A DNA stretch of 64,000 bases, from contig JAIXTW010000010.1 in the NCBI GenBank assembly GCA_027483765.1, positions 124,001-188,000 of the forward strand. Reading direction: 5' to 3'. Source of the stretch: Streptomycetaceae bacterium. Its GTDB lineage: Bacteria > Actinomycetota > Actinomycetes > Nanopelagicales > Nanopelagicaceae. Shown here one piece after another: positions 53,478 to 53,981 of the stretch. The position numbers were made by a program, and so were the translations under genes. The first letter of the stretch is position 1. Every line of letters begins with the position of its first letter. Below the pieces are notes generated by a model. The model saw only the letters and a program-made list of their open reading frames with translations. It was not told where the DNA came from and did not search any database.

Positions 53478-53981
53478 TTAATTTTGTCTAAAAAATGGAT
53501 TGGAAACGTTCTCTGTTGCCTTCATAACGTCGGCAGCAGTCGGTTTTCCATTCTTGCCGTTGGTGAGCGCATCAATCATGGCTTGACGCTGATTGCGAAA
53601 TACTTCCTCTTCATCATTCGCAGTTGGGTTAAGCCATACCGCCGCAACAATTATTAAGTGATCTGTCTGTGCTACATCAATGACACCGTTGCGAAGTGCA
53701 TCTCCGACTCCGGCAGCGACGCCAGCTTGTGCAGCGCCCCATGTAAGTAGACCGTGTTGATCACTTTCCACCGCTGCTTTATTTACGAAGAGCGTTGGTG
53801 GAGTCACTGCAATACCTGGTTGCGCAACAACCATAAATGGGACGTGCCCCGCACGCGGAGTGGCAAGGGCAGTTGCCCAAGCCACTCCCGCGGGTCCAGA
53901 TCGAGCTCCGAGAATTGTGTTCGTATGAGCCGCATTAGGGCCACTGCCCACAAAGCCTTCCCCGATCTGGATTTCAATCAT
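53478..53981 (-). CDS. formaldehyde-activating enzyme (Fae) homologue, divergent
   Basis: IGEGFVGSGPNAAHTNTILGARSGPAGVAWATALATPRAGHVPFMVVAQPGIAVTPPTLFVNKAAV...GAAQAGVAAGVGDALRNGVI follows the recalled Fae pattern (VGEALVGDG.EVAHIDL IIGPRGSPAE.AF...LLAV.APN...KP.T..FNKV.I...QAVQMFGPAQ.GVA.AV.D.V..G.IP). Confidence 0.83.
   Translation of the reverse strand: MIEIQIGEGFVGSGPNAAHTNTILGARSGPAGVAWATALATPRAGHVPFMVVAQPGIAVTPPTLFVNKAAVESDQHGLLTWGAAQAGVAAGVGDALRNGVIDVAQTDHLIIVAAVWLNPTANDEEEVFRNQRQAMIDALTNGKNGKPTAADVMKATENVSNPFFRQN

What the first reader, a model, noticed from the sequence alone, without database searches (positions are those of the whole stretch)
53478..53981. Divergent formaldehyde-activating enzyme (Fae) homologue inside an actinobacterial OpuC-transporter catabolic operon
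Seen directly: a 167-aa Fae-like protein with the AH segment around the catalytic His, but the nearby Asp of 'AHIDLIIG' (from memory of methylotroph Fae) reads Asn here ('AHTNTILG'). Established: Fae condenses formaldehyde with tetrahydromethanopterin in methylotrophs and methanogens, whereas actinobacteria normally detoxify formaldehyde by mycothiol routes. No H4MPT gene is visible in the window. Inference: either a C1 step is tied to a methylated or betaine-like substrate, or the Fae fold has been repurposed for a different carbonyl-adduct reaction in this pathway.
Basis: partly seen in the sequence, partly recalled or inferred. Interest (0 to 1): 0.82.

Follow-up and report, generated by a model that had tools for sequence, protein, structure and literature searches.

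The report
Fae-like enzyme without its cofactor pathway
A freshwater actinobacterium carries, in a betaine-uptake operon, a relative of the methylotrophs' formaldehyde-capturing enzyme Fae; it belongs to a large, deeply separate clade whose hosts lack the cofactor (tetrahydromethanopterin) that Fae normally needs, so databases probably misname it and its true reaction is an open, testable question.

Summary
The ORF at 53478-53981 (minus strand, 167 aa) matches PF08714 (155 bits), is predicted to have the Fae fold (TM 0.9 to 1y60), and reads AHTN where M. extorquens Fae reads AHID.

This is not a one-off. Among 108 relatives, Asn replaces that Asp in 107. They form a clade set apart from H4MPT-operon Fae by a long branch with 100/100 support. 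His, Lys and Gln of the active site are kept.

All 43 searchable genomes carrying a relative have exactly one fae gene and none has mch. Thirty genomes tested also lack Ftr and DUF447. True Fae genes found with the same query sit beside mch. So this is not H4MPT-dependent Fae, although TIGR03126 passes marginally.

Its commonest home is an IclR-OpuC-type transporter-fae-enolase-ALDH-HIBADH-FeADH operon. fae directly precedes the enolase-superfamily gene in 54 of 108 loci, often with stop-start overlap. The binding protein keeps the quaternary-amine aromatic cage and carboxylate contacts. In Nanopelagicales the block is a cassette: present or wholly absent beside the rib genes.

Best reading: an H4MPT-independent Fae-fold enzyme acting on an aldehyde or hemiaminal adduct in betaine catabolism. 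Its substrate and reaction are not shown. It is a new variant of a known family.

The parts
53478..53981 (-). Fae-like protein (PF08714), orphan clade with Asn next to the catalytic His; H19, K68, Q85 retained, N21 in place of Asp
52343..53446 (-). enolase-superfamily (mandelate racemase type) enzyme; K149xR151, D180, E216/E217, E241, D264, H291 conserved in 53 operon copies; starts right after fae in 54 of 108 relatives
50843..52333 (-). aldehyde dehydrogenase of the omega-amino/betaine-aldehyde type (nearest solved: KauB, PuuC-like)
49916..50806 (-). 3-hydroxyisobutyrate / tartronate-semialdehyde family dehydrogenase (HIBADH-like)
49034..49909 (-). EamA-type transporter, conserved in the Nanopelagicales version only
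53988..54920 (-). OpuC/EgtU-type substrate-binding protein; quaternary-amine cage (Y96, N140, Y142, F224, Y248) and carboxylate contacts (K46, T99, R181) present; F48 as in AfProX, not Gly as in EgtU
54940..55731 (-). ABC permease, OpuC type
55735..56700 (-). ABC ATPase, OpuC type (start codon uncertain; longest ORF to 56778)
56693..57385 (-). second ABC permease, OpuC type
57445..58212 (+). IclR-family regulator, divergent from the operon (longest ORF starts 57397)
58265..59401 (+). iron-containing alcohol dehydrogenase (nearest solved: NAD-dependent methanol DH, lactaldehyde reductase); in other actinobacteria it lies inside the operon

Best explanation
The gene is one of a large orphan clade of Fae-fold enzymes that work without tetrahydromethanopterin. 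Shown by sequence: the fold and the His/Lys/Gln of the active site are kept, the neighbouring Asp is Asn, and the hosts lack the H4MPT pathway. Shown by comparison: the gene is co-inherited and often overlaps with an enolase-superfamily gene, within a regulated operon for uptake and oxidation of what should be a quaternary amine bearing a carboxylate (a betaine). Inferred: the betaine is imported by the OpuC-type transporter. The enolase-type enzyme, ALDH, HIBADH-like and Fe-ADH steps take its carbon skeleton apart. The Fae-like protein uses its His-centred site to make or hydrolyse an aldehyde adduct of an amine (N-hydroxymethyl, hemiaminal or iminium type). It would thereby release or trap formaldehyde, or a small aldehyde formed in the pathway, on a partner other than H4MPT.
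For: Family and fold. D-to-N in 107 of 108 relatives against D in 8 of 9 controls; active-site His in 107 of 108 (one alignment gap), Lys and Gln in all 108. Separate clade, branch 3.03, support 100/100. 43 of 43 genomes have one Fae and no Mch; 30 of 30 lack DUF447 and Ftr. Annotated Fae controls lie beside mch, mtd and H4MPT-synthesis genes. Operon core conserved across actinobacteria, Chloroflexota and Deinococcota. fae-enolase adjacency in 54 of 108, 28 with a 4-bp overlap. Binding-protein residues for the quaternary amine and carboxylate, mapped on the EgtUC structure paper PMC9732360. Other versions also sit with amine or betaine functions: an ergothioneine-utilisation-like cluster, an OpuAC-type binding protein in a Thermaceae MAG and an Fe/2OG HxD oxygenase directly upstream in 21 loci.
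Against: No assay, expression or ligand data. No obvious N-demethylase lies in the window operon, so a formaldehyde source is not visible. Some versions (fae-HIBADH alone, fae-AKR-ALDH) lack the betaine transporter. The roles of Asp24, Lys71, Thr73 and Gln88 in Fae are recalled, not tested; the position of Thr73 varies and is still Thr in 20 of 104. NCBI's equivalog cut-off for Fae is passed, if narrowly.
Confidence: 0.45

Rival explanations
1. Folate version: the protein accelerates condensation of free formaldehyde with tetrahydrofolate (or another pterin), detoxifying C1 released by demethylation of the imported betaine.
For: The aldehyde-handling residues are kept while the neighbour of the catalytic His that is Asp in H4MPT-operon Fae is changed. 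Betaine-type uptake. No mycothiol-dependent formaldehyde dehydrogenase over cut-off in the window genome. In some relatives a class III/NDMA-type Zn-ADH adjoins fae.
Against: No folate C1 gene is linked. No demethylase in the window operon. The tight pairing with the enolase-type gene is not explained by general formaldehyde detoxification.
Confidence: 0.25
2. Repurposed fold: no formaldehyde at all. The Fae-like protein catalyses a C-C or dehydration step (for example retro-aldol removal of a hydroxymethyl group, or lactone/lactam opening) on the enolase-type enzyme's substrate or product.
For: Gene overlap with and adjacency to the enolase gene across classes. HIBADH-like neighbours act on hydroxymethyl acids. 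Residues peculiar to the clade: P42, H76, near-invariant H46, W81.
Against: The catalytic core of Fae is conserved. Several versions pair fae with oxygenases or aldehyde/alcohol dehydrogenases instead of the enolase.
Confidence: 0.22
3. Ordinary acquired H4MPT-dependent Fae whose partner genes were missed.
For: TIGR03126 cut-off passed; the databases name it Fae or H4MPT hydro-lyase.
Against: No Mch in 43 of 43 genomes, no Ftr or DUF447 in 30 of 30; D-to-N; separate clade; not seen next to mch, unlike the controls.
Confidence: 0.04
4. Thiol-linked analogue of Gfa: condenses formaldehyde with mycothiol or another thiol ahead of a Zn alcohol dehydrogenase.
For: ADHs related to S-hydroxymethyl-thiol dehydrogenases adjoin or lie near fae in a few loci (L028, L068, L078, L085).
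Against: Those ADHs fall below the equivalog cut-offs. The window genome has no mycothiol FDH over cut-off. The same clade occurs in Burkholderia, which from general knowledge does not make mycothiol.
Confidence: 0.04

Closest known systems
Formaldehyde-activating enzyme Fae (5,6,7,8-tetrahydromethanopterin hydro-lyase), M. extorquens, PDB 1y5y/1y60
   Same: PF08714 fold, full-length alignment at about 29% identity, TM 0.9, His/Lys/Gln and flanking glycines kept
   Different: Asn for the Asp near the catalytic His; clade-specific P42, H46, H76, W81; separate clade; no H4MPT genes in the host; different operon
[quoted passage not shown]
   Same: Fae annotation without methylotrophy genes, noticed earlier and put down to detoxification
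   Different: No clade, residue change or operon appears in the passages read, and whether the MAG genes are Fae or Gfa was not checked here
OpuC/ProX/EgtU quaternary-amine ABC importers (subcluster F-III binding proteins)
   Same: Aromatic cage and carboxylate contacts of EgtUC present
   Different: Phe at the position of EgtU Gly244, as in AfProX, so probably not ergothioneine; tied to a catabolic operon, not to osmoprotection
Acid-sugar dehydratases / mandelate racemase group of the enolase superfamily
   Same: KxR, metal ligands D/E/E and Asp-His dyad
   Different: All named NCBIfam equivalogs far below cut-off; conserved Trp/Phe-rich positions; function unknown

Membership tests
PF08714 Fae superfamily | significant Pfam match over gathering cut-off | tested here: met
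   155.4 bits vs 27
PF08714 Fae superfamily | Fae fold | tested here: met
   AlphaFold2 model pLDDT 90.7, Foldseek TM 0.91/0.90 to 1y60_D
H4MPT-dependent Fae (TIGR03126, EC 4.2.1.147) | NCBI equivalog score | tested here: met
   127.6 vs 118.05, marginal
H4MPT-dependent Fae (TIGR03126, EC 4.2.1.147) | active-site His with neighbouring Asp (AHID) | tested here: not met
   His kept, Asp replaced by Asn in 107 of 108 relatives; Asp in 8 of 9 controls
H4MPT-dependent Fae (TIGR03126, EC 4.2.1.147) | host has the H4MPT C1 pathway | tested here: not met
   no Mch in 43 of 43 carriers or the window genome, no Ftr or DUF447 in 30 of 30
H4MPT-dependent Fae (TIGR03126, EC 4.2.1.147) | groups with experimentally known Fae in a tree | tested here: not met
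   eight H4MPT-type Fae form a 100/100 clade on a 3.03 branch, without any of the 94 relatives
H4MPT-dependent Fae (TIGR03126, EC 4.2.1.147) | catalysis of methylene-H4MPT formation | not testable with these tools
   needs enzyme assay
Fae-Hps, Fae2, Fae3 | placement with archaeal Fae-Hps or named Fae paralogues | not tested
   no Hps domain in the 167 aa protein; Fae-Hps model far under cut-off; named Fae2/Fae3 not placed in the tree
F-III quaternary-amine binding proteins (the transporter) | aromatic cage plus carboxylate contacts | tested here: met
   Y96, Y142, F224, Y248, N140 and K46, T99, R181; invariant or nearly so in 48 operon copies apart from N140, 37 N and 11 D
EgtU ergothioneine importers | invariant Gly244 | tested here: not met
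   F48 at that position, conserved in operon copies

The most novel reading that the evidence does not exclude
PF08714 contains a second, widespread enzyme family whose reaction is not formaldehyde plus H4MPT. It is a new amine-aldehyde adduct (or hydroxymethyl-lyase) activity coupled to an uncharacterised enolase-superfamily enzyme, in a new betaine catabolic route used by some freshwater acI bacteria. The annotation 'formaldehyde-activating enzyme' is wrong for it.
Probability: 0.5. Interest if true: 0.8.

Novelty: new variant of a known kind. Interest (0 to 1): 0.62.

Why it matters
Fae is used as a marker gene for H4MPT-linked formaldehyde oxidation and methylotrophy. A clade that passes NCBI's Fae cut-off but lives in genomes without H4MPT will give false C1-metabolism calls in metagenomes, including for acI actinobacteria, among the most abundant lake bacteria. 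The conserved operon makes a concrete, testable prediction: a regulated betaine pathway with an unknown enolase-Fae step. It offers a way into a new enzyme activity and into what these oligotrophs eat.

Tried and rejected
Canonical H4MPT module: rejected by genome searches for three families. Mycothiol route in the same genome: no hit over cut-off. Ergothioneine as the imported substrate, from the best PDB hit EgtUC: rejected as most likely because EgtU's invariant Gly244 is Phe here. Trimethylamine dehydrogenase next to fae in L068: first suspected, but NCBIfam places that flavoprotein nearer mycofactocin-system OYE proteins, under cut-off. The Zn-ADH and quinone oxidoreductase at 46819-48929 were taken as not part of the module because they are not conserved in the other copies. 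The first gene caller (longest ORF) failed in high-GC loci and was replaced by a codon-bias caller. The original Fae structure paper is not held. The paper search for fae with enolase superfamily gave nothing, and the B. terrae hit was only in its reference list. Promoter scan: fewer sites than in shuffles, uninformative.

Full report
CHECK OF THE OBSERVATION. The span 53478-53981 holds an intact 167-codon gene on the minus strand. It matches PF08714 with 155.4 bits against a cut-off of 27 and TIGR03126 with 127.6 against 118.05. Against the PDB the only relatives of note are M. extorquens Fae (1y5y, 1y60) and a chain, 8ub7, that contains a Fae domain. The alignment shows AHIDLIIG opposite AHTNTILG. 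The predicted structure (26 sequences, pLDDT 90.7) superposes on 1y60_D with TM 0.91/0.90 and rmsd 2.0.

GENOME TEST. The window genome (1.29 Mb, 96% complete) has one PF08714 gene and no Mch, Ftr or DUF447. A scan of 85,488 species genomes found 455 loci encoding a relative; the best 80 were fetched. Of 44 genomes behind these loci that were asked for, 43 could be searched: all have exactly one PF08714 gene and none has Mch. A set of 30 carriers, partly overlapping, has no DUF447 and no Ftr. The searches rang in methanogen controls, and for Mch and DUF447 also in Haloferax. For bacteria, the positive control is that genes found with the same protein query at roughly 26-31% identity in plasmids include annotated fae genes lying close to mch, methylene-H4MPT dehydrogenase and H4MPT-synthesis genes in Azoarcus, Phyllobacterium, Azospirillum and Thiodictyon. 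Limit: incomplete MAGs can lose genes, but several carriers are single-contig genomes.

THE CLADE AND ITS RESIDUES. 108 relatives (from genome loci, plasmids and two random draws of actinobacterial genomes) were aligned with nine controls. Two residues after the catalytic His, 107 of 108 have Asn; eight of nine controls have Asp. The ninth, from Methylobacterium sp. DM1, lacks the His as well. The catalytic His is present in 107 of 108 (the remaining row is a gap), the Lys of the NK motif and the Gln of the GxAQ motif in all 108. The clade adds P42 (all) and H76 (all but one), and H46 and W81 in almost all, with other residues in most controls. In the tree the eight H4MPT-type proteins form a clade with 100/100 support on a branch of 3.03 changes per site, apart from all 94 relatives (bootstrap not fully settled, deep order within the relatives unresolved). 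From memory of UniProt, the annotated Fae sites are His22, Asp24, Leu53, Lys71, Thr73 and Gln88; here they read His19, Asn21, Met50, Lys68, Ala70 and Gln85. That mapping of roles is recalled, not tested.

GENE NEIGHBOURHOOD. The window operon reads: divergent Fe-ADH and IclR regulator; permease, ATPase, permease and binding protein of an OpuC-type importer; fae-like; enolase-superfamily enzyme; ALDH; HIBADH-like dehydrogenase; EamA transporter. The same core, often with the Fe-ADH and a second ALDH inside the operon, recurs in Microbacteriaceae, Arthrobacter, Actinomadura and Kibdelosporangium, and with other importers in Streptomyces, Chloroflexota and Deinococcota. Other versions: fae-HIBADH-ALDH-SDR-FAD oxidase-FGGY kinase in Nocardioides; fae-AKR-ALDH-MFS in Burkholderia and relatives; an Fe/2OG HalD-family oxygenase (HxD, so hydroxylase-like) directly before fae in 21 loci, mainly Acidimicrobiia-like genomes; and an ergothioneine-utilisation-like cluster in L068 whose amidohydrolase scores best against ErtD, under cut-off. 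The gene directly after fae is the enolase-type gene in 54 of 108 loci, and in 28 of these the two overlap by 4 bp, a sign of translational coupling. The fae-enolase pairing survives in the most divergent members (L125-L128). Gene calls in unannotated loci come from a home-made codon-bias caller.

SUBSTRATE CLUES. The nearest solved relatives of the binding protein are EgtUC, OpuBC/OpuCC and ProX. The EgtUC structure paper (PMC9732360) gives the cage residues F293, N339, Y341, Y419, Y443, the carboxylate contacts K242, T296, R379, and the EgtU-specific Gly244, which is Phe in the glycine-betaine protein AfProX. Through the alignment these are Y96, N140, Y142, F224, Y248; K46, T99, R181; and F48 in the window. 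Across 48 operon copies all are invariant or nearly so, except N140 (37 N, 11 D). So the importer should take a carboxylated quaternary amine, probably not ergothioneine. This is inference from sequence. The ALDH is nearest to omega-amino aldehyde dehydrogenases (KauB, PuuC-like). The enolase-type enzyme has KxR, D180, E216/E217, E241 and the D264-H291 dyad in 53 copies, the mandelate-racemase pattern, but no named equivalog comes near its cut-off. No N-demethylase is present in the window operon, so a formaldehyde source there is not visible.

DISTRIBUTION. In the genus only 2 of 36 sampled relatives besides the window genome carry the gene; in random draws 9 of 396 class and 17 of 399 phylum genomes have a PF08714 gene. 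In the close sister genomes G104 and G170 the rib operon (74-86% identical) is present but the whole block from EamA to Fe-ADH is missing within the 20 kb compared, while carrier G141 has it beside ribH. GC content of the block does not stand out. It behaves as an accessory cassette.

MECHANISM AND VERDICT. Shown: an H4MPT-independent Fae-fold clade, its residue change, its operon and its betaine-type importer by sequence. Inferred: that it acts on an amine-aldehyde adduct within betaine catabolism. The main rivals are capture of formaldehyde on tetrahydrofolate and a repurposed C-C reaction on the enolase-type enzyme's substrate. An ordinary H4MPT Fae is nearly excluded. By the membership rule it should not be filed as H4MPT-dependent Fae, because the Asp, the pathway and the tree placement were tested and not met; it is a member of the PF08714 superfamily. 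Earlier literature noticed Fae genes without methylotrophy genes in 12 soil MAGs (PMC10994693), so the orphan state as such is not wholly new; the clade, its residue signature and its operon were not found in the papers searched.

Noticed in passing
L068:5795-18715: Ergothioneine-utilisation-like cluster in an actinobacterial MAG: aromatic amino acid lyase fused to a rhodanese domain, urocanase, ErtD-like amidohydrolase, M20 peptidase, OYE-type flavoprotein and Zn-ADH around a fae-like gene.
   Followed up: partly
L037:9168-10001 and about 20 further loci: HalD-family Fe/2OG enzyme with an HxD (hydroxylase-type, not halogenase-type) motif directly upstream of fae-like genes, apparently a two-gene unit of unknown function.
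   Followed up: partly
L137:4989-5537: Methylobacterium sp. DM1 plasmid Fae paralogue that lacks both the catalytic His and the Asp, next to genes annotated as glutamine amidotransferase, GlxC, FMN-binding glutamate synthase and type III glutamate-ammonia ligase.
   Followed up: no
L115, L117: Version of the operon with an amino-acid/polyamine-type permease, an agmatinase-like ureohydrolase and a class III aminotransferase-like gene, suggesting a guanidino or amine substrate there (functions read from sequence by eye).
   Followed up: no
window 59413-62686: Riboflavin genes ribH, ribBA, ribE, ribD next to the cassette; in sister genomes without the cassette they are intact.
   Followed up: yes
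PDB 8ub7: Solved chain named Avd (290 aa) that contains a complete Fae domain at residues 126-287, perhaps an engineered fusion.
   Followed up: no
NCBIfam TIGR03126: The equivalog cut-off for formaldehyde-activating enzyme lets in the window protein, so automatic annotation will name this clade Fae.
   Followed up: partly
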